DNA from: Sergeia podlipaevii
Lineage: Eukaryota; Euglenozoa; Kinetoplastea; Trypanosomatida; Trypanosomatidae
Assembly: GCA_030849805.1 (NCBI GenBank)
Contig: JASANZ010002133.1
Span: 1-51,858 of the forward strand
Length of the DNA: 51,858 nucleotides
Reading direction: 5' to 3'
A program made the position numbers and the translations under genes. This document shows, piece after piece, positions 21,173-49,884 of the stretch (positions within the stretch are counted from its first letter, which is position 1; each line of letters starts with the position of its first letter). The notes beneath the pieces are model-generated. The model made no database searches, had not been told where the DNA came from, and saw nothing but the letters and a program-made list of their open reading frames with translations.

Positions 21173-21212
21173 GGGGGAAAAGAGTGAGTGAGTGTGTGTG
21201 TGTGTCTATAAG

Positions 21213-24786: not shown

Positions 24787-24817
<31 letters not shown>

Positions 24818-25061: not shown

Positions 25062-25088
25062 ATACATCAACCATAACCATTACCAATT

Positions 25089-26537: not shown

Positions 26538-27338
26538 ATGGCCGCACGCACGTACACACGCGAGGAGATGCACTCCTTTGCTAAAGCGCTCATCACTGAG
26601 ATGAACTCAGCTGACTTTATGCCGAGGCTCAAGGAGGCTGCCGCACGCGACCCGATACCGTGCAACGACGAGGAGCTGATTGTGCGTTACGAGGAAGAAC
26701 AGATGGACTTTATCAATACTCGCTATGTGCCTGCTGCGGACGGTACGACGACGAGCTCGGCTGCGCAGAAGCGTACAGATGGTAAGGAGGTTCTTGCTCA
26801 GATGCGTCTTGCGGTCAAGACATATCCTGACAAAGAAACGGAGAAGTTGATTTCAGAGATGTGCGTGCTTGAGGAGACCCAGCTGATGACACTAATAGCG
26901 TCTGTGCCAGAGCTTGCTCCACTTTCTAACCTCGGCACAAGCACTCAAGCAGGATCTCATGGACACTCACACAACGGTGTGCCCTGCGACGGCAGTGCAC
27001 ACGGTCATAGCCACAACCACAACCACAGCCATGGGGGTGCCCACGGTCACTCACACAACGGCGTCCCATGTGATGGTAGCGCACACGGCCATAGCCATAG
27101 TGGTCATGGCGGTATGGACGCGGAAAGGATGGCCATGATGAACATGGCGATGCAAACGTTAAATCCTCAGCAGCAGGCGACGCTGCAGCGAGTACAGAAT
27201 ACGGTTAACAGCGGGTCTGCACCATCTGCGGACGATATGCGTGAAATGTTTGGCATTCAGCAGCATATTATGGCGGTCATGCAGACCATGCAGCAGTTTA
27301 GCGCTCCACAAAACACTGGCGCAGGCAAGAAGAAATGA
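26538..27338 (+). CDS. His-rich, probably metal-binding cytosolic protein
   Basis: 266 residues from the first ATG after the likely acceptor; the frame is open to a TTG at 26505. I do not recognise a named family. The N-terminal half (about 1-130) is a charged helical domain. In the middle a 19-residue unit, HGHSHNGVPCDGSAHGHSH, occurs twice with identical sequence (141-159 and 169-187), joined by a His/Asn/Gly linker. Clusters of His with a Cys in each unit are typical of zinc, nickel or copper binding. The C-terminal part (about 190-250) is Met/Gln-rich and helical (LNPQQQATLQRVQNTV, then MFGIQQHIMAVMQTMQQF), slightly like STI1-type helices. No signal peptide or transmembrane segment is seen, so it is probably not a ZIP transporter. 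Metal storage or a metallochaperone role is inference. Confidence 0.88.
   Translation: MAARTYTREEMHSFAKALITEMNSADFMPRLKEAAARDPIPCNDEELIVRYEEEQMDFINTRYVPAADGTTTSSAAQKRTDGKEVLAQMRLAVKTYPDKETEKLISEMCVLEETQLMTLIASVPELAPLSNLGTSTQAGSHGHSHNGVPCDGSAHGHSHNHNHSHGGAHGHSHNGVPCDGSAHGHSHSGHGGMDAERMAMMNMAMQTLNPQQQATLQRVQNTVNSGSAPSADDMREMFGIQQHIMAVMQTMQQFSAPQNTGAGKKK
26958..27098 (+). repeat. Two-copy coding repeat (57 bp units, 84 bp period)
   Basis: Units at 26958-27014 and 27042-27098 encode the same 19 residues but differ at 11 codons, all silent. See the findings. Confidence 0.9.
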
Positions 27339-27396
27339 AACAAAATGAAAATAGAAAAAAGGCAGATAAAAGGAACGTAAATATGCGGAAACACGT

Positions 27397-27433
27397 AGAA
27401 AGAAAGAAGAAAGAAAGAAAGAAAGAAAGAAAA
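27397..27433 (+). repeat. (GAAA)n tetranucleotide repeat
   Basis: GAAA/AGAA units just downstream of the His-rich protein gene. Confidence 0.85.
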
Positions 27434-27530
27434 GATAACATTGGCACAAAGATCAGGAAAAGAAAAGCGTTATATATGTATAATTGAGAAGGGGAACGAA
27501 AAAAAAGAGAGACGGTGTTGTGCATTTTGA

Positions 27531-27566
27531 TAGAGAGAGAGAGGGAGAGAGAGAGAGAGAGAGANA
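27531..27566 (+). repeat. (GA)n microsatellite with an ambiguous base
   Basis: A GA repeat with a GGGA interruption. Base 27565 is N, the only ambiguous base I saw in the window, so repeat length may be uncertain here. Confidence 0.9.
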
Positions 27567-28256
27567 TGTTTTCCCTTTCCCTTCCCTTCCCCCCCCCCCT
27601 CTATTGATTTAACTTGTTGATATATATATTACTCCCTTTCTGTTTCCTCCACGTTATGCTTTTCCTTTTTTATTATTATTTATATTATATTATATTCCTT
27701 TCCTCTCTTTTTCCCTTTTGTAAAGCAGTCTCTACATTACTATTATACTCGTGAAGATAATGCACGGTGAAATGAAGCGGACACAAGACTATCACAAAAA
27801 AAAAAAAGTTTTAAAAAAAACGGTGATCAACGATATTAGCAACAACATCAGGAAGAAACAAATACACAAACGAACGAAAAGAAGAAGCAGTACTAAACTC
27901 TATCGTTGGAGTGTGGAGAGTGTTCGAGCGCAAAGGACCCACTACCTTTTCATGCGTTTGACAAAGGGACTTCTTTTTGCTCTTTTCTTTATATATATAT
28001 ATATATATTGTTGTTGCCCCGGATCTTGAACAAATGCGTAATTACTGATATTATAGTCAGCGGAATTTTTTTTGTTTTTTTTTTTGGAATATGGAGTTAA
28101 ACTTCACGTCTTTCATATTTTTTTTTTTTTTTTTTTGCTAAACACCATGTTCTCTTGTCCTTTTTGTTTTCATCTCCCCTTCTCCCCTCCTTCTCCTTCA
28201 TTATTGTTATTCTTTCATAAAAATAGAATTGCTCGCCTGAAAAAAAAAAAAACATA

Positions 28257-28293
28257 TTCTTCGTTGTTCTTTTCGGTTTGTTTCTCTATTTAG
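28257..28293 (+). promoter_or_regulatory. Candidate spliced-leader acceptor for gene at 28444
   Basis: A pyrimidine-rich tract ends TTTCTCTATTTAG, with AG at 28292-28293. No ATG lies between it and 28444. Confidence 0.55.
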
Positions 28294-28346
28294 CATTGAG
28301 AGAAGGTTCTCAGGGTTCCGCTGGAAGCTGGGTTTTCTATCGTTAG

Positions 28347-28391
<45 letters not shown>
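28347..28391. repeat. (CA)n(TA)n compound microsatellite
   Basis: About 8 CA units followed by about 15 AT units, in the probable 5' leader of the gene at 28444. Confidence 0.9.
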
Positions 28392-28393
<2 letters not shown>

Positions 28394-28443
28394 GTTGGCT
28401 AGCCGCGAAAAAAAAGTAGAAGAAAAGAAAAGAAAAGAAAAAC

Positions 28444-32690: not shown

Positions 32691-34985
32691 ATGCTCAAAA
32701 CTGGAAAAGAAGTCTCTGAGGGTCAGGCGTTCCACCGCCGCCTGCTCAGTGAGTACAACACGGAGTTTACCTTGGACAACTACGTTAGCTACTTCACCTT
32801 GAAGCCGATTGCCAAGAAAATAGAGAAGCTACGTAAGGAGATTGAGGAGCGCAGCAAGGAACTGCTCAACAAGCCCCAGAAGGCGCCGCTACCACCTCTG
32901 TTTAGTCCCAACAGCATCGCAAGCACTGCGGTGTTTCGTGACCCGATGTCCCCTGTCATTCCGCCGAATGAGCCGCTGCTCCTCAAGGATGAGAAGCTCG
33001 CCGCGCTGTGGGATGAACGGCATGTCGCACAGCGTGACTTCTTCGCAGAAATAGGCAAGTCCTATCACAAGGTGCAAGACTACTTGATTAAACTAGAGAA
33101 GGAGATGGTGGCTTTCATGGATCAGCTGCACAAACAGACCGATAAGGACATCCGCAAGATGAACCCGGACTACATTCCTTTTCTCTATCTGAAGCTAGAG
33201 TCCATCCACAAGTACCGCGTACTGAACCTTGTCGCGTTTCGCAAGATTCTAAAGAAATTCCTTGAGCGATGTGCAACAGACAGCCTAGAACTGCAAAAGC
33301 GCGTGTTTCAGATGGACTCGGTCATCACGAAGAGCAACATCTCCATCCCTTCACTCAACTTTCGTGGTGTCGCGATGGAGCTCATTGCAATCTACGGCAC
33401 CGTGTACCGCTACTCCTACGAGGAAGCCCTGACTCGCCTTCGTCAATACGAGTACCGCAGCGGCATTAACGCTCAGCGCATCCTCCCAAACAGCAACACA
33501 TTTTTCTTTGGCAACACCTTTCCACCACATGAACGTCCAGGCAACTTTGCTATTCGCGTGCTTGCTGGCTCATGCAGTCTGTTCTGTGAGAAGATGATCA
33601 CTGAGATGTGGCAGTGCGCGCGGTATCCTGGTACCTGCTGCAGTCAGTTTGCCAACGGTGAGACCAGTGTCAGCCTACACGCTCCGCTGCGCGGTGATGA
33701 TGTCTTCATTGTGCAATCCATGGTAGCATCGGAGAAGCATAACATCAGCAACAGTGGAGCTTTCATGGAACTCGCACTGATGATTCACTCTGCTCAACTT
33801 GCTGCGGCGAGTCGCATCACAGCTGTGATCCCGTATCTTGCGTACACCCGCAACACCGCGTCGATATCGGCAATTTCGGAGATTATTCAAACTATGGGAT
33901 GCCATCATGTGATCACGGTGGACATGCACAGTGACCAGGTGGAGGGCATGTTTACAATTCCAATGGAGTGCATCTCTGCAAAGTACGAGTTTGTGCGCTT
34001 TTTGACGAATCAGCTCAAGAATGAAGGGAATGACTTCACTAACATCACGATTGTCGCAACGAATGGCGAGTTTCTTGGTAAGGCTAAGGACTTTGCAGAT
34101 GCCATGATGCGCTATGGCGAGCTGGACAGCGAGAAGCAGTTCGTCTCGGTGTGCACGGCAGTAAAGCGAGTGAAACCGCAGCGCGAGAAGGTGCATTCGG
34201 CGGTGGCGAGACCCGGCTTAGTCGAGAGCCCTGTGACTGCCTTTGGGGCGACGCTGGTCACGCCGACAACGAGCGAGTCTTCTTGGCCGATTCCGGTGAA
34301 GCAAGCGTGGCGCGCCAACCCCACGTTTACGGCGTCCCCGTCTCCAGAGGCGACTGGTACATCTTCGCATGAGATATCCAGCCCTGTCTCCCCTGGTGAC
34401 CCGCAGATGAACGATTTTGCTACGGTGGCCTCTGTGATCTCCGAGGCAGGCTGCAGTGCCACTGGAGAAACCAACAGTAACGTGAATGCGAGCGGCAGTG
34501 GCGCTTTTAAGAGGGGTCTCCCCGCGCTCCCACGCACGGGCAGCACGCTGGGCATTGAGCAAGCGCTACGGCTTCAGGAGGAAGGTCGCAGGGCTGTTGT
34601 GACGCACCAGATCGAGGTCCGCAACGAATACGAGAACTTTGCCCTGGTGGGTGATGTCAGTGGGCGTCTCTGTGTTATTCTGGATACGGTGATTGACGAG
34701 GCGGTGAACATTTGCCAAGTCGCACGCAGTCTTCACGCCAACGGCGCGGAGCGCATCATTCTTGCCTCCACGCACGCAGTCTTCGCTGGTAAGGCGATTG
34801 AGAGACTGAGGGAGTCACCTATAGATCTCATCGTGGTGACGGATAGCGTGAACCAGGATGATGTTATGACGGATCCAGTCCTGGCCCGTAAAATGCGAGT
34901 TGTGCCGATCGCGCCTCTGCTTGCTCGAGCCATCGAAAAGATTCACACAGAGAACACGTTGTCGACCCTTTTTGAAAAGAGTTAA
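32691..34985 (+). CDS. SPX domain fused to degenerate PRPP-synthetase-like domain
   Basis: 764 residues. The N-terminal part (about 1-230) has SPX features: an early helix pair (LDNYVSYFTLKPIAKKIEKL), a middle helix (RDFFAEIGKSYHKVQDYL), then YRVLNLVAFRKILKKF at 175-190 with the basic cluster Lys185/188/189. SPX domains bind inositol pyrophosphates and report phosphate status. From about 265 comes a phosphoribosylpyrophosphate synthetase fold: FANGETSVSL, RGDDVFIVQSM, ITAVIPYLAYTR (from 377), VITVDMHSDQVEGMFTIP, FALVGDVSGRLCVILDTVID, IILASTHAVF. A Ser/Pro-rich insert sits at about 500-630. Key catalytic parts look altered: the RQD-type ATP-binding segment after PY..Y is shortened to TRNTAS, and the PRPP loop reads DTVIDEAVN (665-673) instead of DDxxDTxGT. 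It may be a regulatory subunit rather than an active enzyme. No PTS1 at the C-terminus. Confidence 0.93.
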   Translation: MLKTGKEVSEGQAFHRRLLSEYNTEFTLDNYVSYFTLKPIAKKIEKLRKEIEERSKELLNKPQKAPLPPLFSPNSIASTAVFRDPMSPVIPPNEPLLLKDEKLAALWDERHVAQRDFFAEIGKSYHKVQDYLIKLEKEMVAFMDQLHKQTDKDIRKMNPDYIPFLYLKLESIHKYRVLNLVAFRKILKKFLERCATDSLELQKRVFQMDSVITKSNISIPSLNFRGVAMELIAIYGTVYRYSYEEALTRLRQYEYRSGINAQRILPNSNTFFFGNTFPPHERPGNFAIRVLAGSCSLFCEKMITEMWQCARYPGTCCSQFANGETSVSLHAPLRGDDVFIVQSMVASEKHNISNSGAFMELALMIHSAQLAAASRITAVIPYLAYTRNTASISAISEIIQTMGCHHVITVDMHSDQVEGMFTIPMECISAKYEFVRFLTNQLKNEGNDFTNITIVATNGEFLGKAKDFADAMMRYGELDSEKQFVSVCTAVKRVKPQREKVHSAVARPGLVESPVTAFGATLVTPTTSESSWPIPVKQAWRANPTFTASPSPEATGTSSHEISSPVSPGDPQMNDFATVASVISEAGCSATGETNSNVNASGSGAFKRGLPALPRTGSTLGIEQALRLQEEGRRAVVTHQIEVRNEYENFALVGDVSGRLCVILDTVIDEAVNICQVARSLHANGAERIILASTHAVFAGKAIERLRESPIDLIVVTDSVNQDDVMTDPVLARKMRVVPIAPLLARAIEKIHTENTLSTLFEKS

Positions 34986-37032: not shown

Positions 37033-37083
37033 ATGTATTTGCTTATGCGAGAGTTAGCAATATGGAAATATGCTCCTAGATAA
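37033..37083 (+). other. Upstream ORF overlapping the Kelch-TM kinase start
   Basis: ATG at 37033 opens a 16-codon frame whose stop (37081-37083) lies beyond the main ATG at 37070 in another frame. A second mini-ORF (37062-37079) also overlaps the start. They would be in the leader if the acceptor at 37003 is used and could repress translation. Confidence 0.5.
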
Positions 37084-40000
37084 ACTTAGTGCCTGCCGTC
37101 ATCATGATCGGCTAGTATATCATAACATCATTTCAAGAGGAGTCCTGTTGTTCTTTGTTGTGACTGCTTTTTGTCTTAGTGTGTGTCTGACTTCAACCAT
37201 ATCAGCAGATGCAGCCGAAGTGAACACTCAAGAGCCGCCTCAAGCACTCCGTAATGTGTCTCATCTGTCTTCTGTAGGCAATGCATATCGTGTTGCAGAA
37301 CCTTTCCTTAAAGGCTGGACACTGCTAGATGCGAAACTGCAGGGCATCGGCTACTCTCCCGCTGCACCGCAACTAGGCCGCTACGTTTTTATCATGGGAG
37401 GAATCATCGGCATCAGCAAAGACAAGAAAAGAAGAGATGTCAGCATGGCTGTGTTTGTGCGCAACTATACGAGCCGACGTGTGAACGCGTTTGAAATGGC
37501 AAGCAGCACTATGAAAGCTGTGGCATGGGAGCTCAAAACGAATGTTGTGGACCCCCGTGAAGAGATGAAGAAGAACCGCACCCGCGCAGTATATACTGCC
37601 TTAAAGAGCACGTGTTCTTCACATATTTATTCACAATCGCATCATCGCACTTCAGCGACGACGACGACCCAAACTGGTCAAAGCAACTTTGGAAAGAGCG
37701 CTGATCCAGATGAATTGGTCGAAAGAATGATGAGGAATACTTCGATGCACAGCGAAAACACCGATGGTGGTGGTGCGCTACCATTACCTTTTCCTGTTGT
37801 TGGCGCCAACAGTGCGGTGCGTCTTGCATCCAGTGTGTATGTTATTGGATTTTGCAATGTACTTCCCCCCTGGGTGCACGTGGGATCTCCTCCTAGAACA
37901 AGAAGCGTAAATGCCCAGAAACAGATGCCATCTCGTGGCATACATAGCACGGTTGACGATGTGAACGACGACGATGACAACCGAAGCATTACGCGCGATT
38001 ACCTCCTCTCAGTTCAGCGTATACGACTGCTGCAACGCGACTTTCCAGAGGTGGACGAGATAGCCATTGAAGTAGTCAACTGGACGCTTCCCTTGAGCGC
38101 TGTCCTGAGGTACAACGCCAGCTGTGTGCCAGCCGCAGATCTGATATACATCATTGGCGGTGTGAACGCAGAAACAGGCGAGGAGCTGCGCACGGTGGCA
38201 CAATACAATGTCACCAGCGGTGTCTTTGTGGATGCGGTGTGGTCTTTTGAAAAGGAGCTTGTTACTCCTGCTGTGGCGGCACACAGCCAACTCCTCTATG
38301 TAGCGGGTGGGTTTTCAACTGTGCATGGCGTATTTTTCCCCTCTCTGGAAACGAGCGAGGCGGTCGCGGTGCTCGACACGGCTCATACCGTGCTGGCATC
38401 TCACGTAGGAGACTACGCGGAGGACAGTCTTGGTTGGTTCTCACCACAGATGTTCGTTCATGGAAAGTCAGCTCTCCTGTCTGGCGGAGCGTACGACACT
38501 TTGGCGCTGTGGCAAGACATGACCGAATCCACGTCTATCTTCACCACCACCGGGGCCTCTGCTACTTCGGGCTTGTTTTCCAATTTTTCTATCCCTCGGA
38601 GACACAAGAGAGGGACTCGCTCTCTGTGCACTCTGCTAGAGGCCGGGTTTGAACCTCAACGGCAACACGCGGTGCTTGCCGTGACACCTTTCTCCCGTGC
38701 TCACTTCTCCTTCTCTTCTCGCGCGGTGTCCAGCAGCGTGATGAGTGCGGGCGACGCTAAAGTCGGTGAGGATGATGGCTATACCATGTATCTCTTTGGC
38801 GGCAACGTGCCACCGCCGTCTGGCAGCGACACCAGCGAGGCCGCCCCAGATATATTTATAGCGACAGTTCATTATTCTTCTCCCTCTTATGCGGTGCCCT
38901 CTAATAGTTCATTTACGATCGGCAAGGAAAAAAAGAGAGGGCATGAGGGTGCGGGTGGGCACGTTACAGAGGTGACGATGACTGCTGCGGCTATGGCTGC
39001 TTCCACGCCAGAACTTATTGGCTTTACATATCAAACGGTCCTCCTTGGGTCCTCATGGTCACGAGCAACAACAACAACAACGATGCCTGCGGCACAACCC
39101 AATAAAGGAGAGATGCCACCATCACCGCTTATCGTCCAAAACGCGGAAGTGCCCAACCAAGAGGGCAATATTACGATTTACGTGAACGGATATGTGCCGC
39201 TGTGGTACAACGTCTCCTTCCGGGTTTTGCTCTTGCACGATGTTGTCTCCATGTGTCCCGGTATTGTTACCCCAACGCCACTATCGTCATCACCTTCCAT
39301 TTCTCATCTAAGCAACAACCGTGACAAGGGTGAGGAGCATGACGGCGGTGGTGGTGAGAGCGAGGAGACACACTCACAGTGCGAGCTCGCGCTGTCCTTG
39401 ACTCCGCAGTGCGACACTATTCTAGCTCGTGTCAAGCGCCTTGGGTCACGAAACACGTGGGAGAGATTTATACCAGTGCTAGACGACGCGGGAAATGTGA
39501 CGGGAACTCAGATGGTGATGTCGGTAGGTGAGGTGATGATAATCGGATCTCGCGAGGCGGGCATCCTGCACGTCCTCTTCGCCGAGGAGGAAGAAGGAAG
39601 TTACAAGGGCGAGAAGGCGCCACTACTTTCAGCAGCATCAGCGGCTTCTCTGGAAAGAAGAAACAGTATTGCCAAGAGGCTACCGCTATGGCAACAGAGG
39701 CAAAATACCCATAGTAGTACTACGATTGATAAAGGAGAAAGAGAGAAGACGGACTACGGTGGCGGTGGCGGTGGCGGCGGCGACAAAGACGGCAGCCATA
39801 TCGATGATGATACAGACAAGATTAACCTTCAACCACAGGTGTTCGTGTATGTCTGCTTCTCTACCGCCTCCTCATCGGTTGCCAAGTGTCAGGAGAAGAA
39901 AAATTCGCGGAGCTACACGGCGGCGGGAAGTGACGTGACAACCACCGACAAGGGCAAGGAACGTGGAAGCGCATCTTTCCTTTACGATGGCACAGACCAG

Positions 40001-42622
40001 GCATGTGCCTCTTCTTTTTATCAAGTTCTTAACGCGCAGACGCCTCTTGTGTTGTCTCCTGTAACGACCTGGAAGCCTGATACACCAACGCCACCTCCAA
40101 CCCCTCCTCCGCCGACCCCAACGCCGCCTCACAGAGATGATATAAGGGCTTTCGCATTTGGAGTCACGGGGATGCTGACGGTGGCTGCTGTGATGCTGTT
40201 ATGGGCAGGAAGTGGAAGAGACGATTGGATTAGAGGCGGCAGCGCTGCTGGTGAGGACTACAGCGATAGCGATGAAGAGAACGAAGAAGGTGGTGAAGGA
40301 GTGAACAGTGTAGGCGGGCGACGCGCGGCAGCAGAGGGCGCTGGAATTCGTCGTAGCCTGTTTCCCTCCGCTACTACGTGGTTCTCGCGTGAGCAGGGCC
40401 GTCGCTACCGTCGTCGCTCTCATCACCGTCAATATCGCCGCCAAGGAGATGACGCTGGCGACACTGGCAATCACGGCAATGATGACGACAGTGCGTCTCA
40501 GCACTATGAAGGTGAAGTCTCGGATCCAGAGAGAGGTCGTCAAGGCCACAAACGCAGGGGACAAGATCGAAATACACACGGTGCAGCAGCAGCAGCAACT
40601 AACGCACAGCACAACAACGCTCTGTTAGAAGGCAAATATCGCGTAGTCAGGCGCCTTGGCAGGGGGAGCTTCTCCATCGTCTATCTCGTAGAGCGGGTGC
40701 AGGACAGGCGCTTGTTTGCGCTCAAGTACGTGCAGTGCTCCGATGACACGGATCGACACGCCGCGATGAAGGAGTGCGAGGTGGCCTACGCACTTCAAGA
40801 TCACCCAAATGTGATTCAACTTGTGGATATGTTTCTCTCCTATCGATTTGACAACTATATTGCCAGTGAGAGAAGCAACCCTCCGAAGGCCGGCACGTCG
40901 ATCCCTGCCGCCACCGCCGGGGCAGCAACAGCGGTACCGAAGCCGACTAACGGTGGCAAGAGTACTGGGCCTATTCTGGAGGGCTCTCCCACAGGCGCAG
41001 TGGCTCTCACAACCAGTGAGGCTCCGGCACCAGAACAGCGCCAAACAGAAAGACAGCTCTTTCCCTTACCGTCACCATCCGCAATGGATTCGTCTCCTTC
41101 TCCATCACCACCTCCTGGCTCCGTTATGGTCCGCATCGACACCACCGTCGGCGATGAGACCACGGCGTGCTTGCCCCCGCAGCAGCGTTACCAGCAATAT
41201 TACTCATACCGGGATGAAATGCGTGGAATGGAGGGTGGCCGAATGTCATCTGGTGGTGCAGTATATGGCGCACACAACACCCGTGCATCACGAAGAGACT
41301 ATTACAATCATCGACCACATCATCAGCAGCAGCAGCAGGAGGGGCCTAGTCATGGCGAGCGGTATCTCTCTCTTGTGATGGCGTATCAGGAACTCGGTGA
41401 CTTGGGGCAGTGGGTGCGGCGCCAAAAAGCATCTGCGCAACTTCGTGTTCCCGAGGCAACGGTGGCTAGTATCGCCTATCAGGTCCTCTCGGTGCTGAGA
41501 TACATGCATAGCCGTACGCCACCTATTGTTCATCGAGACTTGAAGCCGGAGAACATTCTTCTCACCTCTACTGTCAAGTATGAAGGCGTGAGTGCGGACT
41601 TTCTGCCTGTCCTCGTGACCGACTTTGGTCTCGCGCGTGTGATGGATGCAACGTTTTGTGAAACCGGTGTCGGTTCCTTACCCTACGTCGCGCCAGAGTG
41701 CTGGCAGCGCCGCTACTCTACCAAGGTCGACCTATGGGCACTGGGGTGCATTCTTTATGCAGTGTGCGCCAAGCGCGTAGAGAGTGATAATGTACGAGTG
41801 ATGTTCAGTGAAAGTGTGAGACCTGACTTTGCTTCCAGGAATCTGACTGAGCTCACGCAGGTGTGGGGATACAGTACGCATCTCGCGCAGCTCATCGTTT
41901 CACTTTTGGAAGTAGACGTGGGCCGGCGGCCTAGTGCAACGGACGCGCTCAAGATGCTATGCGAACGGCCCCTGCCCTTTATGCTGTCTCCTGCCGCCAG
42001 TGCTAGCGCTGCTTCACCTGGATTTATCTCTCGAAGTGTACCGACGGCGCAGCAGCGTGGAGGTGGAGGCGGTGGTGGTGAGACACTTGGCAATGCTGGC
42101 ACATCTGCTTCTGTGGACGGTAGCGGTGGCATGCTGGAGAGACTCTCCACGGCATCTACCGTGAAACCGAGTGATGGCCTAGTAGGAGCAGCAGCGGCAG
42201 GCGCCTCGAGCCAAGAACAGCAGCCTTTTTGGGGTCACGCAGAGCAGGGAGAGGCAGGCATCACCGCTAGTGCTGCTCTCCCTCGTCATCTTCAGCCTTC
42301 ACAAGTGGTCGTCGCCATTCCACGTGATCCTTCAGGCGGTATTCCATCCTCCTCCTCTCAGGGGGCATTGACGTCAGCGGCCAGAGCCACCGTTCATTCA
42401 GGACCTTTACCCAATAACACCGAAAATGCAGGGGAGATGCCTACTGCACGCCCGCTGTCGCGCGGCGGCGACAATGGTGGTGGTAGTGGCGAGCCTTCCT
42501 ACTCTATCATGTCTTCCTATTCTACCTCGACGACGCGCATCGACACAAGTGTGTCTGGTGCGGCATCAGGTGTGTCATCACATGAAGTGATTCCTTGCCA
42601 TTCATCTCAGCAGGAGTTGTAA
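37070..42622 (+). CDS. Receptor-like transmembrane protein kinase with Kelch-like ectodomain
   Basis: 1,850 residues. A hydrophobic segment at about 24-41 forms a signal peptide, and no other Met precedes it, supporting this start. The ectodomain (about 60-1000) has Kelch-type strands with double Gly (YVFIMGGI near 105, LIYIIGGVN near 357, LLYVAGGFS near 408, MYLFGGN near 571) and several N-x-S/T sites, consistent with a beta-propeller. A Pro/Thr stalk leads to one transmembrane helix (about 1026-1045). The cytoplasmic kinase starts at about 1190: Gly loop GRGSFSIV, Lys1219, alpha-C Glu1237, HRD at 1488-1490 with DLKPEN, DFG at 1518, and APECW. All catalytic residues are present. About 165 low-complexity residues interrupt it between strands 4 and 5. 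The motifs TPPIVHRDLK and DLWALGCILY resemble NAK/NEK kinases. The last 200 residues are a disordered Ser/Gly tail. The next gene is a paralogue. Confidence 0.93.
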   Translation: MLLDKLSACRHHDRLVYHNIISRGVLLFFVVTAFCLSVCLTSTISADAAEVNTQEPPQALRNVSHLSSVGNAYRVAEPFLKGWTLLDAKLQGIGYSPAAPQLGRYVFIMGGIIGISKDKKRRDVSMAVFVRNYTSRRVNAFEMASSTMKAVAWELKTNVVDPREEMKKNRTRAVYTALKSTCSSHIYSQSHHRTSATTTTQTGQSNFGKSADPDELVERMMRNTSMHSENTDGGGALPLPFPVVGANSAVRLASSVYVIGFCNVLPPWVHVGSPPRTRSVNAQKQMPSRGIHSTVDDVNDDDDNRSITRDYLLSVQRIRLLQRDFPEVDEIAIEVVNWTLPLSAVLRYNASCVPAADLIYIIGGVNAETGEELRTVAQYNVTSGVFVDAVWSFEKELVTPAVAAHSQLLYVAGGFSTVHGVFFPSLETSEAVAVLDTAHTVLASHVGDYAEDSLGWFSPQMFVHGKSALLSGGAYDTLALWQDMTESTSIFTTTGASATSGLFSNFSIPRRHKRGTRSLCTLLEAGFEPQRQHAVLAVTPFSRAHFSFSSRAVSSSVMSAGDAKVGEDDGYTMYLFGGNVPPPSGSDTSEAAPDIFIATVHYSSPSYAVPSNSSFTIGKEKKRGHEGAGGHVTEVTMTAAAMAASTPELIGFTYQTVLLGSSWSRATTTTTMPAAQPNKGEMPPSPLIVQNAEVPNQEGNITIYVNGYVPLWYNVSFRVLLLHDVVSMCPGIVTPTPLSSSPSISHLSNNRDKGEEHDGGGGESEETHSQCELALSLTPQCDTILARVKRLGSRNTWERFIPVLDDAGNVTGTQMVMSVGEVMIIGSREAGILHVLFAEEEEGSYKGEKAPLLSAASAASLERRNSIAKRLPLWQQRQNTHSSTTIDKGEREKTDYGGGGGGGGDKDGSHIDDDTDKINLQPQVFVYVCFSTASSSVAKCQEKKNSRSYTAAGSDVTTTDKGKERGSASFLYDGTDQACASSFYQVLNAQTPLVLSPVTTWKPDTPTPPPTPPPPTPTPPHRDDIRAFAFGVTGMLTVAAVMLLWAGSGRDDWIRGGSAAGEDYSDSDEENEEGGEGVNSVGGRRAAAEGAGIRRSLFPSATTWFSREQGRRYRRRSHHRQYRRQGDDAGDTGNHGNDDDSASQHYEGEVSDPERGRQGHKRRGQDRNTHGAAAAATNAQHNNALLEGKYRVVRRLGRGSFSIVYLVERVQDRRLFALKYVQCSDDTDRHAAMKECEVAYALQDHPNVIQLVDMFLSYRFDNYIASERSNPPKAGTSIPAATAGAATAVPKPTNGGKSTGPILEGSPTGAVALTTSEAPAPEQRQTERQLFPLPSPSAMDSSPSPSPPPGSVMVRIDTTVGDETTACLPPQQRYQQYYSYRDEMRGMEGGRMSSGGAVYGAHNTRASRRDYYNHRPHHQQQQQEGPSHGERYLSLVMAYQELGDLGQWVRRQKASAQLRVPEATVASIAYQVLSVLRYMHSRTPPIVHRDLKPENILLTSTVKYEGVSADFLPVLVTDFGLARVMDATFCETGVGSLPYVAPECWQRRYSTKVDLWALGCILYAVCAKRVESDNVRVMFSESVRPDFASRNLTELTQVWGYSTHLAQLIVSLLEVDVGRRPSATDALKMLCERPLPFMLSPAASASAASPGFISRSVPTAQQRGGGGGGGETLGNAGTSASVDGSGGMLERLSTASTVKPSDGLVGAAAAGASSQEQQPFWGHAEQGEAGITASAALPRHLQPSQVVVAIPRDPSGGIPSSSSQGALTSAARATVHSGPLPNNTENAGEMPTARPLSRGGDNGGGSGEPSYSIMSSYSTSTTRIDTSVSGAASGVSSHEVIPCHSSQQEL

Positions 42623-42663
42623 GTTGTGATGGTCGCAAAATAGTATCCCCCCCTCCCCTCCAA

Positions 42664-42700
42664 TGAAGACTTCTATATGCGGAGCATACAGAAGTCTTCA
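42664..42700 (+). repeat. Strong inverted repeat (17-bp stem, GGA loop)
   Basis: Arm TGAAGACTTCTATATGC (42664-42680) pairs with GCATACAGAAGTCTTCA (42684-42700) at 16 of 17 positions around a three-base GGA loop. It begins 42 bases after the stop codon, in the presumed 3' UTR of the Kelch-TM kinase. Confidence 0.9.
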
Positions 42701-43385
42701 TTTCCTTTCTTTTATTGTGTATGATGCGTAAATATAGATTGATATATATATACTCATATATAGCTATTTTTAATTTATTATTATTATTATTTATTACTTT
42801 GTGTGCTTACTTGCGCTTTTTTTTTCTTGCTTTTAAATCAATGTCTCTGCTCAATTCTTAAAAGAAAAAAATATTGTTGTTGTTGCTTTGAAGCTCTCTA
42901 TTTTTTTTTATGTCTGTCTGCTTTCTTTTTTTTCTCTTTTTTTTTTGTATGTGAGGTGATTATTAGCTTCACAACTCTATAGAGGGCGAGTAGCATTATT
43001 GCAATATGCGGACTCCACATATTTTTTTTAAGTATTTGGTTTCTATAATCACTCTCTCTCTCTTCTCTCTCCCTTCTCTCTCTCTGTCTTTGCACATATA
43101 TTATCATTTTTTTTGTTTGTTTCTGCCAGAAAGTGAACTCAAGTACTCACCAACAGTAGTAAAAAGTGTTTGTCGATATATGGTACTGTCTTCATACATT
43201 GACACACACACACACACTTCTGTTTTCCTTCCTTTTCAATTTTTTCTCGAGTTGTTTCTTCTTGCTTAAGTGTCGACGTTAATATTTTCTCTGGTGTTTT
43301 TTTCGTTTCTCTTCTTTAACATATACATATATATATTTATATAGTTATTTATAAGTTACCCTAGTGATATATAGCCGGGAAGGAC

Positions 43386-43415
43386 TTCTTTTATTCTTTC
43401 CTGTTAAACTGAAAG
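43386..43415 (+). promoter_or_regulatory. Possible spliced-leader acceptor for second TM kinase
   Basis: TTCTTTTATTCTTTCCTG is followed by TTAAACTGAAAG, with AG at 43414-43415. An earlier tract near 43295-43318 with AG at 43343-43344 is an alternative. Confidence 0.35.
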
Positions 43416-43465
43416 AAGGGAGGGAAGAAGACACACGCACAAGCAAAGACTATTTCTTTTTCCTT

Positions 43466-43489
43466 ATGTGTTTGCCGTGTATACTGTAA
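43466..43489 (+). other. Seven-codon upstream ORF ending one base before the second kinase start
   Basis: ATG at 43466 encodes MCLPCIL and stops at 43487-43489; the main ATG is at 43491. It would lie in the leader if the acceptor is upstream of 43466. Confidence 0.5.
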
Positions 43490-43490
43490 T

Positions 43491-46400
43491 ATGGCTTGTG
43501 TCAGGTTTCCAGTAGGCACGTCTCGACGAGGCGGAACAGCAGCTGCTTCTGTGTCCCGCTCTTCCTTTCCTTCATTATGTCGAACCTTTTTCGTTATGGC
43601 AAGGGCACTAGCCACTCTGGTTGTGCTTCTCGTTATATTTGCTTCTACACCCTCTTCAGCGGCCTCTATCAACGATGTAGAGATCAACAACAAACCTTCC
43701 CACAGCAGCAGTAGTGGTATCTCTAGAGTAGGGGATGCGGCAGCTAGCGCCGCCGTCGCTACTGTATCGCTCGACACTGCACTTTTGTTGGTAATGGCGG
43801 TCGTGGCTGCCACGGTTCTTGTTACATGCATCGCAGCAGGCGTGGTGTCATACTTTGTGGTTGCTCGCGTCCTGCATACTCAGACGGCATCTTCATCATT
43901 TCACAGTTTCAGAAATGAGCAGTGCAGAACTAACAACGTGGCTAGCGTTGTGGAGAGCGATGTGCACAGTGAGGCGACGATGCGGATGCTGTATCGAGCC
44001 CTTGCGCAATACGCTTTTTCTTCCTCTGCACACGCCAGGCGCGAGGAGGAGGTAGAAGACGACACCACTGGAGACGCGGCTCGAATGCCACTGCTGGTTC
44101 AGGTAGGTGCCGCAACAGAGGAGGGGAAGTCTAGTAGAGGCGGCTATGGGGCCACAGAAGGTGGGCGATCAGCTGGGCACAATGAACGCGAAGAAGCTTT
44201 AGTGAATTTGATGAGGATGATGATGATGAAGGCCGATGATGCTAGCACTGATGAACCGTTTGAGACTCGAAATGATGGATGTAAGGTGAACCGCCGGTTC
44301 TCTGAGCAGCATCATCAACAAGATGTAGTACGCGGGGCAATGAACCCCTGCGTCAGCTCGGCAAACGGAGTAGCAGACAAGGAGGAAGGAGAGGAAGGAG
44401 ACGGCGCGGGGGCAGCGTCGCTTCCGGTGTTCACACCAACCGACGAGAAAGATAAAGGCGTTATGCAAAACGTTCACAGCTCTCGTTATCGACTACTGCG
44501 TCGCATTGGGGATGGCGCCTTCTCGTCTGTCTACCTTGTACAACGCAAGCAAGATAGGAAGTGTTTTGCGATGAAGTACGTGGTCTGCTCGGATGATCGT
44601 GAGCGCACGGCGGCGGTGCACGAGTGTGAAATTATCAACTCCGTGCAGGGGCATCCTAACGTGATCAAGATTGTCGATATGTTTATGAACTACAATTTTA
44701 ATGCGAGTGCAAAGAAGCAAGGAGAAAGGGGAAAGGAAAAGTTGTGGCGCGAGGAGAGAGGAGGGCCAGTAGAAAATTCTATTCCAAGACCTGTGGAAAA
44801 GCTAGTTACCGCTGCTGCTGGTGGTGCTGGTGGTGCTGGTGGTGCTGTGAACATTGTCAGCACAACCGTGGCACTTGGACACGCTGCTCACCTCCAGCAG
44901 CAGGTCGTGTCGCCATGCCTTGGTGAAGAGCGCGCTGTGACCGCAATGGTCATGGAGAGGATCACACAGGGTCCTGATGAAGGCGAAGTCCCGTTGTTCT
45001 TGAGTGAGGCTGACACAGAGCAGCTGATGATGGAGGCTCGACGCAAGCGCCATGAACGAATGCGACCACCACCACCCCATCATCATTCTACTACAACTCA
45101 TGCGCTGAAGGAAAAGAACAGCAACAGTCATGCACTCAGCGCTGGGAGCGGAGGCGGCAGCAGCAGTGCCAACGGCCCCGGAACTCAGCAGCAGCAGCAA
45201 AGACCAGCTCAGATTGTGGAGCTGCTACAGCACACGGTATCCTTTTCGAAAACTCCGCCGTTTTCCAATCGACACGACAGCACGCTACCGCCGACACCGC
45301 AGATAGTGCCTCAGTTGGTACAGCTCGGGGCAGTCGCGCCATCTGCGACCTCGTCCTCATCTTTGCTCTTCTCCTCCTCTGCCTCACGGACTGCGACGGT
45401 CGCCGCCACCGCCGCAGCAGCAACGACTGCGCACTCGGCGACTTCGGTAAATGGCCTGAGGACGATCAGTAGCAGTGGGCACTCGAGCGCTATGCATCAT
45501 CCACCCCGTGGCACTCAACAGGAAAAGGCGCAGACGCAGCAGGTCGCGACTGTCCACGTGTCTGATATGACGTCTCCAGGCGGAATCCGTGGTAGTGGTG
45601 GTGTCTCTAGCAGTGTAGGTGGGTGGGTGCACAGCCATGAGGCAGCCAGTAGTACGTGTGTTCCTGTGACCACTGCACCACGGTCATCCACTTTTATGTC
45701 AAGTAGTAACAACGGAGACGCAGAACTAGGGGATGAGGAAGAAGACGAAAGCTACGTGGAGCCATTACAACCCATTCAGCGCGTGTCTGTGGCCCCACAG
45801 CCACCCGCGTTCAATGGAACTTCTGTGGCTGCGGGGGATCACTATCTACCTCCCATCTCGCCGCCCGCAGTCTTTCCTAAGAGTACCTCTGCGATTGGTG
45901 CTTCGGCGGTGTCGTTGGCCGCGCAGACGTATAATGAACGCGTCCAATTTCGTGCTGTGAGCAAGCCTGCGTCGGGCCTTGTAGCAGATGTGCGTTACAA
46001 CGATGAAGGACCTCACCTTCAACGATCACTGGCTACAGCCGCGGAAACTGTATACGCTGCCTCTTCGCACGTGAAGCTTCATCCAGCACCGATCAAAAAT
46101 GAGCATGGCTCCTTCTCTCAACATAGCTCACAACGGGAACCAGAGGAATCACCACAACCCGCGCCTCTCATTCAGCGACAAGCGCCACTAGTATACCGCA
46201 GAAACTGCTTCACAAACAATCAGTCTACTGTCGATCATGATGGCCCTTCTCACACCGGCGGAGGTACTCACACCATGATGGGTCCTGTCAGCAACACGCA
46301 TAGCCACTACCACAATTATCACAGCAATAGCAACCGCGTGTATGACCAAAGCACTACTCAAGGGGGTATTCATTGTGGCTCCTATCACCAGCATGCGATG

Positions 46401-48419
46401 CGCTGTAACGAGGAGGACGACGAGGACGACGAAGACGTCATCGAAGTAGAGGAAGAAGAAGAAGAAGCGGGGGCGTACTATCGTAACTTCGTGCCTCAGG
46501 CCTACGCTGCTGGTGCCGCATTACCTAGGGCAGGTGCAACGTCGGTGCATGGCGCTGCTGTGCTTGCTGGTGGCTACTCACCCTATAGCACGTGCGCTCC
46601 CTCTCAGCAGCAACCCCTGAGATTAGCTACGACCCAGCACGCTCCATCACCGCCGGCTCTCGCGGAAGCACAGAACGGTAGTGCAACTAGTAGTGGTGGT
46701 GCTGGTGCTGCCATCACGACAGCTGCGGCGAGCTATCAGCCAAGGGTCTCCTACGCACCTGGAGGAGGAATGGGGATGGGACATATCAACAGCACAGGTG
46801 CGCTGAGATACAACAACATGGGCATTCAACTTGCTGCAGCATCCATGGCGGCGCAAGTAGCGACAGCAGCAGCAGCAGCAGCAGCCACGACGACGAGCAC
46901 CGCGCTGAGCACAAACAAGCAAACGACTGTTCACAACACCAGCAATGTGAGTAAAGCCAGTTCTGCGACGATCACTACTGTTACTGGTAAAGGAGATGAG
47001 ATAGATCAGCAAGCAACGAGCTCAAAGCAGGTCGTTCTCGCCGCTTCTTCCTACGCTCCCAAGAAGTCAATTCTATCTACTGCACCCACAACCACGACAA
47101 CGACGACGACAACCACAGCAACGCTCACTTCAGCGGCAAGTGGAGGACAACAGCGTGGCTTGAGTGGTGGTGGCGGTGCAGCACCACCACCACCACTGCC
47201 AGCACAACTACCACAGAGAGCAGGAGGGGAGAGTGCAGGCGGCGCTACACAGGCTGCAGACAACATCAATCAAAGCTCCAGCAGCTCTTCAGACATGTTG
47301 CACACCGGGTTTGTCTGTCTTGTTATGGAGTATCATGAAATGGGGGACTTGTGCCGATACACATTGCGGTGCAAAGCAGCCCTAGAGCAGCAGCAAATGA
47401 CTGAAGGAGTAGAGGGGCGACGAGGAGGAGGAACAACAACAACAGTAGGACGATCAGCAGATGGCGAGAGGAAAGAGAATCCACTAACAGAACCACAGTT
47501 GCTCTCTATTGCGTATCAAATTGCCTCTGTACTGCTACACTTGCACTCGCAGTCGCCCCCGGTGGTCCATCGAGACATGAAGCCAGAAAATGTGCTGATC
47601 AAAGGCACAGCAAAGACGCTTCTCCGACGCCGGGAAAGCAATTCTATTGTAAATAACAAAGTGTGTAGTAACGAGGATCTCTGCAGCAACATGGAAACAG
47701 GCACGCATAACGTCCCTGCTGCTGCGCCTTCAGAAAGGCATGTGAGCGGTGCTGCAACCAGGTCGAACTCTTCGGCCACCAATGCCATTACCACCGCGGT
47801 ACGATCTGCTGCAGCAGCTGGAAGCTTCGCGAGTGCCAAGGAGGCGGTCTCGCGATCGTTTACGTCGAACCCGTCCGCGGTGGCGTCGGCATCAGCAACC
47901 ATTTCAGTGGCAAGTGGGGGAGGAGGAAGGTGTCTAGACGATGCGCGTATCTCACGCAAGGTGATCCCTATTGTGGTGACGGACTTTGGACTCGCCATCA
48001 CGCAGGGGGATCGGCGCCGCCAAAGGGGCAAAGGTGGGGGCACGCGGCCCTACATCGCCCCGGAGTGCTGGCAAGGGCTCACCTGTACCGCCAGTGATGT
48101 ATGGAGTTTGGGATGTGTTATGTACGCGTTGGCCACCACGCAGCTGTCTTCACGAAACGTGCGTATCATGTCGGAGGACGCGCGTCGCGCGCGGTTTGCG
48201 TCTGTGATTCTGAATGACCTTCTTGGTTGTGGTTACTCACTGGCTTTTGCCAGTTTTGTTGTCTCGCTGCTTGTGGTGGACCCGGCGAAGAGGCCGACAG
48301 CAGCGATGGTAGTGCAATGCTTTGAAGTAACACGCGATGACAACGGGGAGGAAGGGGAGCTAGAGGAGGTCCGGTTTGATGAGAAGTCTCCATTTTTTAG
48401 CAACGTCCTCGACCTTTAA
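43491..48419 (+). CDS. Transmembrane protein kinase with very large intra-kinase insert
   Basis: 1,642 residues; paralogue of the preceding gene. The N-terminus has a hydrophobic signal-like segment (about 38-52) just after an internal Met36 that could be the true start, a short Ser/Asn-rich lumenal part without Kelch repeats, and a strong transmembrane helix (about 97-122). The kinase begins at 333: GDGAFSSV, Lys362, alpha-C Glu380, HPNVIKIVDMF. About 870 low-complexity residues (Ser, Ala, Gln, His, Thr and Pro runs) then separate strand 4 from strand 5 (FVCLVMEYHEMGDL, hinge near 1279). The C-lobe has HRD at 1360-1362 with DMKPEN, a second insert of about 120 residues, DFG at 1498-1500, and APECW. 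All catalytic residues remain. The first 72 kinase residues are about 60% identical by eye to the neighbour. As there, SPPVVHRDMK is NAK-like. Probably a membrane-bound signalling kinase; ligand and substrate unknown. Confidence 0.92.
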   Translation: MACVRFPVGTSRRGGTAAASVSRSSFPSLCRTFFVMARALATLVVLLVIFASTPSSAASINDVEINNKPSHSSSSGISRVGDAAASAAVATVSLDTALLLVMAVVAATVLVTCIAAGVVSYFVVARVLHTQTASSSFHSFRNEQCRTNNVASVVESDVHSEATMRMLYRALAQYAFSSSAHARREEEVEDDTTGDAARMPLLVQVGAATEEGKSSRGGYGATEGGRSAGHNEREEALVNLMRMMMMKADDASTDEPFETRNDGCKVNRRFSEQHHQQDVVRGAMNPCVSSANGVADKEEGEEGDGAGAASLPVFTPTDEKDKGVMQNVHSSRYRLLRRIGDGAFSSVYLVQRKQDRKCFAMKYVVCSDDRERTAAVHECEIINSVQGHPNVIKIVDMFMNYNFNASAKKQGERGKEKLWREERGGPVENSIPRPVEKLVTAAAGGAGGAGGAVNIVSTTVALGHAAHLQQQVVSPCLGEERAVTAMVMERITQGPDEGEVPLFLSEADTEQLMMEARRKRHERMRPPPPHHHSTTTHALKEKNSNSHALSAGSGGGSSSANGPGTQQQQQRPAQIVELLQHTVSFSKTPPFSNRHDSTLPPTPQIVPQLVQLGAVAPSATSSSSLLFSSSASRTATVAATAAAATTAHSATSVNGLRTISSSGHSSAMHHPPRGTQQEKAQTQQVATVHVSDMTSPGGIRGSGGVSSSVGGWVHSHEAASSTCVPVTTAPRSSTFMSSSNNGDAELGDEEEDESYVEPLQPIQRVSVAPQPPAFNGTSVAAGDHYLPPISPPAVFPKSTSAIGASAVSLAAQTYNERVQFRAVSKPASGLVADVRYNDEGPHLQRSLATAAETVYAASSHVKLHPAPIKNEHGSFSQHSSQREPEESPQPAPLIQRQAPLVYRRNCFTNNQSTVDHDGPSHTGGGTHTMMGPVSNTHSHYHNYHSNSNRVYDQSTTQGGIHCGSYHQHAMRCNEEDDEDDEDVIEVEEEEEEAGAYYRNFVPQAYAAGAALPRAGATSVHGAAVLAGGYSPYSTCAPSQQQPLRLATTQHAPSPPALAEAQNGSATSSGGAGAAITTAAASYQPRVSYAPGGGMGMGHINSTGALRYNNMGIQLAAASMAAQVATAAAAAAATTTSTALSTNKQTTVHNTSNVSKASSATITTVTGKGDEIDQQATSSKQVVLAASSYAPKKSILSTAPTTTTTTTTTTATLTSAASGGQQRGLSGGGGAAPPPPLPAQLPQRAGGESAGGATQAADNINQSSSSSSDMLHTGFVCLVMEYHEMGDLCRYTLRCKAALEQQQMTEGVEGRRGGGTTTTVGRSADGERKENPLTEPQLLSIAYQIASVLLHLHSQSPPVVHRDMKPENVLIKGTAKTLLRRRESNSIVNNKVCSNEDLCSNMETGTHNVPAAAPSERHVSGAATRSNSSATNAITTAVRSAAAAGSFASAKEAVSRSFTSNPSAVASASATISVASGGGGRCLDDARISRKVIPIVVTDFGLAITQGDRRRQRGKGGGTRPYIAPECWQGLTCTASDVWSLGCVMYALATTQLSSRNVRIMSEDARRARFASVILNDLLGCGYSLAFASFVVSLLVVDPAKRPTAAMVVQCFEVTRDDNGEEGELEEVRFDEKSPFFSNVLDL

Positions 48420-48909: not shown

Positions 48910-49884
48910 ATGATGCAAAGGTGCGGTGTCATGGCCCGCTCTTCTCCTCTGCTAGCGTGGTCACTATGGGGCAGCAAAGGTAGTTCTGCAGCCTCCGCAC
49001 GTGCTCTCATGAACGACACCGCGGATGGCCTTGGCCAAAGCGACGCAGGTCAGAACTATAGCAACATCGGTGCTCAAAATGGTGTTAGTGGTGGTGGTGC
49101 TGGCCGCTTGCCCTCTCGCGGGAGCTTCTATCCTGGCACCGCAGAGTCACCCGGTACATCCGTTCCAACAGACGAGATCGATGAGATCTTGATCAAGCGG
49201 GCTCCGCATTTGTATGGATCACGTCGTATGCCGGTGTCGTATGACATCGAGGTGCAACACGCCGCCCGAAAGCGCGAAGAGCAGCTGAAAGAGGAAAAGG
49301 CCGAGTTTGACGCGGCGTACGATGAGTGGAACATGCCGCGTCACCCCGAGGACCCCAATCGCAAGCTCGCGTCGTGGGAATTTCGGCCTACTCAGGAGCA
49401 TAAATCGCTCGTCCTCTTACTCTATCGAAACGTTTTGAAAAGCTTGATGGATTACAAGAGCATCCGCAAGCGCAGCATGATCGCGTACACTCGTATGTGC
49501 TTCCGCCGTCGCGCGCACATCACAGAAAAGCTGCTCGTGGATGAGTGCATCGAGGAGTGCCGTCGTGCTCTTTATGTGCTTGGCAAGCATCACGCCTTCA
49601 CTACGACCCGCAACTACGAATTTGAAAACATGTCGATCCCCAAAGACACTGGGCAAGACGTAAAGACTTACATGGAGGAGGTGTACGACCCGGAGATATC
49701 GCGTATGCAGTTTCAAAACTTTACTGATGTACAACCGGGCAAGGAGCACCTTCATCAGCAGAAGTTGAGCCCCACATCTGGCGAACATCACTGGAAAGGT
49801 CAAGCTAATTCGACGTCGTATAAGGTAGAGATACGCGAGGAGGATAAGGTGCTTCGCCCTCCACCGCCGCCTGATATGTCGTAA
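48910..49884 (+). CDS. Mitochondrial LYR-motif (Complex1_LYR-like) protein
   Basis: 324 residues from the first of two adjacent ATGs. The N-terminus (MMQRCGVMARSSPLLAWSLW) is Arg/Ser/Leu-rich without acids, like a mitochondrial presequence, followed by a Gly/Ser-rich linker to about residue 75. From about 160 comes an LYR fold: LLLYRNVLKSL with Leu171-Tyr172-Arg173, then a basic helix (YTRMCFRRRAHITEK) and a third helix (LLVDECIEECRRALYVLG). LYR proteins bind mitochondrial acyl carrier protein and serve in iron-sulphur delivery, respiratory complex assembly or mitoribosome biogenesis. The charged region before the domain and about 100 residues after it are longer than in small LYRM proteins. 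It could be the complex I subunit B22 (NDUFB9) equivalent or a mitoribosome assembly factor; the sequence alone does not decide. Confidence 0.85.
   Translation: MMQRCGVMARSSPLLAWSLWGSKGSSAASARALMNDTADGLGQSDAGQNYSNIGAQNGVSGGGAGRLPSRGSFYPGTAESPGTSVPTDEIDEILIKRAPHLYGSRRMPVSYDIEVQHAARKREEQLKEEKAEFDAAYDEWNMPRHPEDPNRKLASWEFRPTQEHKSLVLLLYRNVLKSLMDYKSIRKRSMIAYTRMCFRRRAHITEKLLVDECIEECRRALYVLGKHHAFTTTRNYEFENMSIPKDTGQDVKTYMEEVYDPEISRMQFQNFTDVQPGKEHLHQQKLSPTSGEHHWKGQANSTSYKVEIREEDKVLRPPPPPDMS

What the first reader, a model, noticed from the sequence alone, without database searches (positions are those of the whole stretch)
37070..48419. Tandem pair of receptor-like transmembrane kinases, one with a Kelch-like ectodomain
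Seen: two adjacent + strand genes each encode a signal-like segment, one transmembrane helix and an intact kinase (Lys, alpha-C Glu, HRD, DFG, APE). The first has a large ectodomain with double-Gly Kelch-type strands and a Pro/Thr stalk. The kinase N-lobes are about 60% identical by eye. Known: trypanosomatids have few kinases with transmembrane helices and no classical receptor tyrosine kinases. Inference: a local duplication produced a sensor kinase and a partner lacking the propeller; they may heterodimerise or form a relay. I am not aware of a described Kelch-TM-kinase of this form.
Basis: partly seen in the sequence, partly recalled or inferred. Interest (0 to 1): 0.8.

Follow-up and report, generated by a model that had tools for sequence, protein, structure and literature searches.

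The report
Kelch membrane kinase and sensorless twin
Two neighbouring genes of a trypanosome-like protist encode membrane-spanning protein kinases, one with a Kelch-type sensor outside the membrane; that design was already reported in the sleeping-sickness parasite, but the neighbour that seems to have lost its sensor is a less familiar twist.

Summary
Gene 1 (37070-42622, 1850 aa) has a signal-like segment, a Kelch-type ectodomain, one helix and a Ser/Thr kinase. Gene 2 (43491-48419, 1642 aa) is a membrane kinase without ectodomain. Their N-lobes are 59% identical over 73 aa. Both keep the catalytic motifs but are split by long inserts (about 170 aa; about 870 plus 110 aa). The architecture is not new: T. 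brucei Tb927.5.3150 was described in 2021 (PMC8519429), and ten relatives found here (seven Trypanosoma, three unnamed) carry an ectodomain on a gene 2-like kinase. It is not a recent local duplication: gene 1 and gene 2 as sisters is rejected with and without outgroup. Gene 1 groups with Novymonas and one unnamed protein (type A), gene 2 with the Trypanosoma proteins (type B). So gene 2 most likely lost its ectodomain, as did one unnamed relative. Kelch fold is supported for about two to three blades; both predictions were low in confidence. Most likely A is an endomembrane or surface sensor kinase and B a kinase freed from that sensor; whether they pair is untested. Modest interest: a new variant of a known kind.

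The parts
37070..42622 (+). gene 1 (type A): Kelch-ectodomain membrane Ser/Thr kinase, 1850 aa
37121..37210 (+). gene 1 aa 18-47: N-terminal hydrophobic segment, signal peptide-like
   Evidence: hydropathy only; no signal-peptide program was available
37364..38854 (+). gene 1 aa ~99-595: Kelch-type strands (double Gly near aa 110, 363, 413, 577; related strand near aa 260)
   Evidence: Pfam Kelch_1 at aa 347-384; Foldseek and VIA matches to Kelch propellers; alignment. Closed ring not shown
38108..38221 (+). gene 1 aa 347-384: best Kelch_1 match
39164..39874 (+). gene 1 aa 699-935: membrane-proximal region with strands in the (low-confidence) model and a conserved Cys (VYVCFS)
   Evidence: fold unknown
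40089..40130 (+). short repeat coding the Pro/Thr stalk just before the helix
   Evidence: translation
40148..40204 (+). gene 1 aa 1027-1045: transmembrane helix
   Evidence: hydropathy
40634..40852 (+). gene 1 kinase N-lobe (aa 1189-1261)
40853..41362 (+). gene 1 insert inside the kinase (aa 1262-1431)
41363..41959 (+). gene 1 kinase C-lobe with HRD (D1490), DFG (D1518), APE (E1543)
42623..43490 (.). intergenic spacer, 868 bases, 32% GC, with pyrimidine tracts; a six-frame search with P0119 listed no ectodomain match here
43491..48419 (+). gene 2 (type B): membrane Ser/Thr kinase without ectodomain, 1642 aa (alternative start 43596)
43779..43835 (+). gene 2 aa 97-115: transmembrane helix (hydrophobic stretch aa 83-129)
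   Evidence: hydropathy
44484..44702 (+). gene 2 kinase N-lobe (aa 332-404)
44703..47306 (+). gene 2 very long insert inside the kinase (aa 405-1272)
47307..47615 (+). gene 2 C-lobe, first part with HRD (D1362)
47616..47951 (+). gene 2 second insert, before DFG (aa 1376-1487)
47952..48416 (+). gene 2 C-lobe, second part with DFG (D1498), APE (E1525) and a C-terminus (SPFFSNV.. L) shared with Trypanosoma type B

Best explanation
Gene 1 and gene 2 are an old paralogous pair of one kinetoplastid family of single-pass membrane Ser/Thr kinases, the family of T. brucei Tb927.5.3150. Ancestrally the family most likely had a signal peptide, a Kelch-type propeller plus a membrane-proximal region on the lumenal/outer side, one helix, and a kinase with an insert in the N-lobe. 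Type A (gene 1) kept all of it. Type B (gene 2) is, by its kinase, the counterpart of the Trypanosoma proteins but has lost the ectodomain and keeps helix and kinase (shown: anatomy, relationships; inferred: direction of change). Likely working: the propeller of A binds a protein or glycan ligand in the endomembrane lumen or at the flagellar pocket; binding changes clustering, and the cytosolic kinases phosphorylate each other and downstream targets; B, without sensor, is clustered through other contacts (its helix or long insert), perhaps with A (all inferred; the site is inferred from the ER localisation of Tb927.5.3150).
Against: Both AlphaFold models are poor (mean pLDDT 35.7 and 45.8), so a closed propeller is not shown. 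A Kelch HMM made from the genome's own Kelch proteins found only one weak blade in gene 1 (4.2 bits; 1 of 200 shuffles did as well) and none in 7 of the 15 ectodomains tested: P0003, P0112, P0116, P0118, P0114 (cut short), P0004, P0005. In the N-lobe alone gene 2 is hardly nearer to Trypanosoma (61-64%) than to gene 1 (57%). Gene 2 with P0111 is not a firm group (80/87 with, 58/69 without outgroup), and P0111's start is a source's prediction whose upstream DNA I did not see. The sequon contrast is weak in P0117 and P0113 and reversed in P0004. That P0119 is the counterpart of Tb927.5.3150 is inferred from the single Kelch ePK of T. brucei (PMC1266030), not from an identifier. No ligand, substrate or activity data for this family were found.
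Confidence: 0.68

Rival explanations
1. One reading: a local duplication in this lineage made a sensor kinase and a sensorless partner that heterodimerise or form a relay.
For: Tandem position and 59% identical N-lobes; hydrophobic N-terminus and one helix before the kinase in both.
Against: Gene 1 + gene 2 as sisters costs 147 and 138 log units. Type A is also in Novymonas and P0001, type B in Trypanosoma and P0111. No interaction evidence of any kind.
Confidence: 0.08
2. The A/B duplication happened after Trypanosoma branched off, in the line leading to this organism and Novymonas; A then evolved fast and looks older than it is. Trypanosoma never had A.
For: Without the outgroup, A + the two ectodomain-less B as one group is not rejected (p-AU 0.379). 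No type A from Trypanosoma came up in three protein searches, which were not built to find one. T. brucei has a single Kelch ePK (PMC1266030).
Against: With the outgroup the same grouping is rejected at p-AU 0.0116, but that outgroup branch is very long (3.03). Type B marks (GGGTRPY, C-terminus) are shared by gene 2, P0111 and Trypanosoma.
Confidence: 0.35
3. Surface or flagellar-pocket receptor kinase that reads the environment, not an endomembrane sensor.
For: Signal-like segment, sequon-bearing ectodomain and Pro-rich stalk suit a surface receptor; the authors of PMC8519429 could not exclude that some ER-stained kinases reach the plasma membrane, and Tb927.5.3150 also stained posterior places outside BiP.
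Against: C-terminally tagged Tb927.5.3150 co-localised mainly with BiP in bloodstream forms, and TrypTag reports a reticulated pattern with puncta.
Confidence: 0.3
4. PERK-like eIF2-alpha kinase: lumenal beta domain, helix, and a kinase with a long insert between beta-4 and beta-5.
For: The layout is that of PERK (recalled); Tb927.5.3150 is in the ER.
Against: Among the 60 best PDB sequences shown of 318 for the family profile, CDPK, GAK, NEK, PDK1 and STK16 lead; the one row naming PKR (6npy_B) also bears a second kinase name and sits with NEK7, and no PERK or GCN2 is shown. PMC8519429 says none of the tested kinases is classed as orthologous to PERK or IRE1.
Confidence: 0.06
5. Artefact: the gene 1 ORF joins two genes, or gene 2 lost its 5' part in assembly.
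For: Draft assembly of 576 contigs; one N in the window.
Against: Twelve relatives of types A and B, and P0004 and P0005, have ectodomain, helix and kinase on one chain; a second ectodomain-less B, P0111; no ectodomain match near gene 2. Third-position GC is 0.35-0.67 over the segments of gene 1 and 0.45-0.63 over gene 2, weak evidence either way.
Confidence: 0.03

Closest known systems
Tb927.5.3150 of T. brucei and the Trypanosoma proteins found here (T. b. gambiense, T. cruzi, T. c. marinkellei, T. rangeli, T. grayi, T. conorhini)
   Same: Signal-like segment, Kelch-type ectodomain, one helix, interrupted Ser/Thr kinase at the C-terminus; of the two genes here gene 2 has the nearer kinase, by its C-lobe.
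   Different: Here the propeller sits on the type A paralogue and the type B paralogue has none; gene 1 has 1026 aa before the helix, against 587-611 in six of the Trypanosoma proteins and 504 in P0118.
Type A proteins: Novymonas esmeraldas P0002 and unnamed P0001
   Same: Kelch-type ectodomain, helix, kinase; N-lobe 77% and 72% identical to gene 1.
   Different: Shorter before the helix (872 and 831 aa); whether a type B lies next to them could not be read with these tools.
P0111 (unnamed source)
   Same: Type B kinase with helix and no ectodomain, like gene 2; N-lobe 68% identical.
   Different: No separate signal-like segment before the helix; shorter inserts.
PERK / PEK family
   Same: Works-like resemblance: lumenal beta domain, helix, N-lobe insert (recalled).
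   Different: No sequence affinity seen in the rows shown.
Kelch propellers (KLHL proteins, KEAP1)
   Same: Double-Gly strands and local fold of about two to three blades.
   Different: Fused to a membrane kinase; complete ring not shown.

Membership tests
Kelch-ectodomain membrane kinase family of Tb927.5.3150 | Kelch motifs before the membrane helix | tested here: met
   Gene 1: Kelch_1 over cut-off, profile match to the Trypanosoma ectodomains E 7.5e-13 over 80 columns. Gene 2 has none, so gene 2 fails this feature and is filed only as a paralogue by its kinase.
Kelch-ectodomain membrane kinase family of Tb927.5.3150 | One helix followed by a C-terminal Ser/Thr kinase of this sequence family | tested here: met
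   Both genes.
Kelch-ectodomain membrane kinase family of Tb927.5.3150 | ER or endomembrane localisation | not testable with these tools
   Known to me for the T. brucei protein only (PMC8519429).
Kelch beta-propeller fold | Blades with the Kelch fold | tested here: met
   Kelch_1 over cut-off; Foldseek and VIA matches over about two to three blades of a low-confidence model.
Kelch beta-propeller fold | Closed ring of blades | tested here: inconclusive
   Model mean pLDDT 35.7; blade HMM finds one weak blade in gene 1, three in P0117, none in 7 of 15 ectodomains.
Receptor tyrosine kinase | Tyrosine-kinase catalytic loop rather than HRDxKPEN | tested here: not met
   HRDLKPEN in gene 1, HRDMKPEN in gene 2; the meaning of the loop is recalled.
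PEK (PERK-like) eIF2-alpha kinases | Insert between beta-4 and beta-5 of the N-lobe | tested here: met
   Insert after the HPN...YRF / YNF block and before YLSLVM / FVCLVM; strands placed by motif, not by a structure.
PEK (PERK-like) eIF2-alpha kinases | Closest sequence affinity to PERK, PKR or GCN2 | tested here: inconclusive
   Other families lead among the 60 of 318 PDB sequences shown.
Active protein kinase | P-loop, Lys, alpha-C Glu, HRD, DFG, APE present | tested here: met
   activity itself not testable

The most novel reading that the evidence does not exclude
The pair is a split lumenal-sensor system: the Kelch kinase A and the sensorless kinase B, both descended from one ancestral sensor kinase, form a mixed complex in the endomembrane and do in these protists the work that PERK and IRE1 do elsewhere, B being the signalling arm set free from ligand control.
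Probability: 0.1. Interest if true: 0.75.

Novelty: new variant of a known kind. Interest (0 to 1): 0.4.

Why it matters
Trypanosomatids have few membrane kinases, and how they sense lumenal or outside cues is open. The Kelch membrane kinase is one of two T. brucei kinases with both a helix and a predicted signal peptide (PMC8519429). A natural pair in which one paralogue keeps the sensor and the other has dropped it offers a ready comparison: it suggests that the kinase is useful without the propeller, and lets sensor and kinase roles be tested apart. If the two act together it would be a simple receptor system in a group thought to have almost none.

Tried and rejected
Recent tandem duplication: rejected. 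Assembly join: unlikely. PERK-like membership: no support in the rows shown. Third Kelch kinase or a Kelch-bearing B elsewhere in this genome: not found with gene 1 or with P0119 as query (only the best candidates are scored). Ectodomain match before gene 2: none listed. Outgroup pair P0004/P0005: their ectodomains gave no profile match to A, B or the unnamed set (hhalign probabilities 0.9, 6.8 and 2.6%) and no blade, so I do not count them as Kelch kinases or as evidence for the ancestral propeller. Structure prediction of gene 1's ectodomain and of whole P0117: low confidence; Foldseek with P0117 gave only kinases in the 50 rows shown. Search for the kinetoplastid spliced leader in the genome: two patterns, no match, so the organism's group rests on its protein relatives and one-strand gene order. 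Leishmania: no Leishmania-named relative among the rows that I used; one search scored only the 7981 best-sharing candidates, so this is no proof of absence. PMC7902614 (passages) says that five Leishmania kinases have a predicted helix and names one; I could not tell whether any is of this family. Of the 110 proteins I used five (P0001-P0005); the other 105 score far lower and were not examined. P0121 (a plant kinase) was dropped. P0118 was left out of the trees as a near copy of P0120, so the trees hold 14 of the 15 relatives.

Full report
WHAT IS THERE. All 11 ORFs of 250 aa or more in the window are on the + strand, as expected of a kinetoplastid transcription unit (recalled). The window is contig C434 of a 23.4 Mb assembly in 576 contigs. 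The spacer between the genes is 868 bases, 32% GC, with pyrimidine tracts, fitting separate trans-spliced mRNAs (inference).

GENE 1. Pfam finds a kinase (148.4 bits) and one Kelch motif over its cut-off (25.6 against 20.1 bits, aa 347-384). Hydropathy gives an N-terminal hydrophobic stretch (aa 18-47) and one helix (aa 1025-1048). Ahead of the helix are 1026 residues with 13 N-glycosylation sequons (1.27 per 100) against 0.25 per 100 after it, which fits a lumenal or outer position; the same contrast holds in P0001, P0002 and the Trypanosoma proteins, is weak in P0117 and P0113 and is reversed in P0004. The kinase has P-loop, Lys, HRD, DFG and APE and the alpha-C Glu (read by eye), but about 170 residues are inserted between aa 1261 and 1432.

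GENE 2. A kinase (119.9 bits) and no Kelch motif. Two hydrophobic stretches lie near the N-terminus (aa 28-61, 83-129), leaving at most a stub of some tens of residues between them. A second in-frame ATG (43596; read) would give a more ordinary signal peptide. The kinase is whole in motifs but split by inserts of about 870 and about 110 residues.

RELATIVES. Three protein searches gave 15 relatives that I used: P0001-P0005 and P0111-P0120. Type A, like gene 1: P0001 (unnamed) and P0002 (Novymonas esmeraldas). Type B, like gene 2, with ectodomain: T. cruzi marinkellei P0003, T. cruzi P0116, T. grayi P0112, T. conorhini P0115, T. b. gambiense P0119, T. rangeli P0120 and P0118. Type B without ectodomain: P0111 (unnamed). 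Three unnamed proteins (P0113, P0114, P0117; the first two look cut at their N-terminus) have ectodomain, helix and a type B-like kinase. P0004 and P0005 are distant (N-lobe 21-29% identical without gaps, so understated).

HISTORY. By the C-lobe, gene 2's kinase is nearer to the T. b. gambiense protein (59% over 157 aa, 78% over 45) than to gene 1 (42% over 127, 34% over 102); the N-lobe hardly tells them apart (57% to gene 1, 61-64% to the six Trypanosoma rows, 68% to P0111). In a tree of 16 rows and 274 columns type A is one group (97/92) and type B with the three unnamed proteins another (99/97). Holding gene 1 and gene 2 together is rejected with outgroup (147 log units, p-AU 1.76e-60) and without (138 log units, p-AU 1.24e-07). 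So the duplication is older than this species' split from Novymonas. Whether it is older than the split from Trypanosoma is open: A with the two ectodomain-less B is rejected with the very distant outgroup (p-AU 0.0116) but not without it (p-AU 0.379). Since the three type A proteins, the seven Trypanosoma type B proteins and the three unnamed ones have an ectodomain, its absence in gene 2 and P0111 is best read as a loss; the two group together with 80/87 or 58/69, so one or two losses are possible. A six-frame search of the genome with P0119 listed no ectodomain match except in gene 1.

PRIOR WORK. PMC8519429 (I saw the abstract, sections 12, 18 and 21, and passages) describes ten T. brucei membrane kinases; Tb927.5.3150 has a signal peptide, a helix and two Kelch/Kelch-like domains, and its tagged form co-localises with BiP with extra posterior staining. 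It also notes a doubtful extra helix inside the kinase domain; gene 2, P0003 and P0112 have a hydrophobic stretch in the C-lobe, which may be the same thing. PMC1266030 (passages) lists one Kelch ePK, of 'unique' class, in T. brucei. Searches for a described Kelch kinase pair or propeller-less partner (2 of 2 papers listed; 1 of 1; 20 of 42; 20 of 22; 10 of 52) showed no other paper that looked to the point by title and abstract start; subscription papers are mostly not held.

HOW IT MAY WORK. Inference from anatomy: the propeller of A binds a protein or glycan ligand on the lumenal or outer side, clustering changes, and the cytosolic kinases become active by trans-phosphorylation. B has lost ligand control and is either constitutive, gathered by its helix or long insert, or recruited to A. 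The T. brucei localisation makes the endomembrane the likelier site, but the authors leave the surface open. No step of this was tested.

VERDICT. Interest is modest.

Noticed in passing
window 32691-34985 (+): PRPP synthetase-like protein (764 aa; Pribosyl_synth E 8.7e-21, Pribosyltran_N E 2.9e-19) with an N-terminal extension of about 290 aa holding a sub-threshold SPX match (25.8 bits, cut-off 27.8).
   Followed up: no
window 48910-49884 (+): LYR-family (Complex1_LYR) protein just over the Pfam cut-off (24.9 against 24.8 bits), 324 aa.
   Followed up: no
window 12228-20093 and 1229-6787 (+): ORFs of 2621 and 1852 aa without any Pfam match at E 0.1.
   Followed up: no
window 20094-28443: Long A+T-rich stretch (37-44% GC in 2-kb windows) with only two ORFs of 250 aa or more.
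   Followed up: no
P0004, P0005 (unnamed sources): Another architecture of signal-like segment, Cys-rich ectodomain, helix and kinase with a long insert in the kinase, ectodomain fold unknown.
   Followed up: partly
genome G000: No match to two kinetoplastid spliced-leader patterns in the assembly; the array may be missing or the leader divergent.
   Followed up: partly
gene 2 insert, window 44816-44847: Nine-base tandem repeat (TGCTGGTGG) coding Ala/Gly inside the kinase insert.
   Followed up: no
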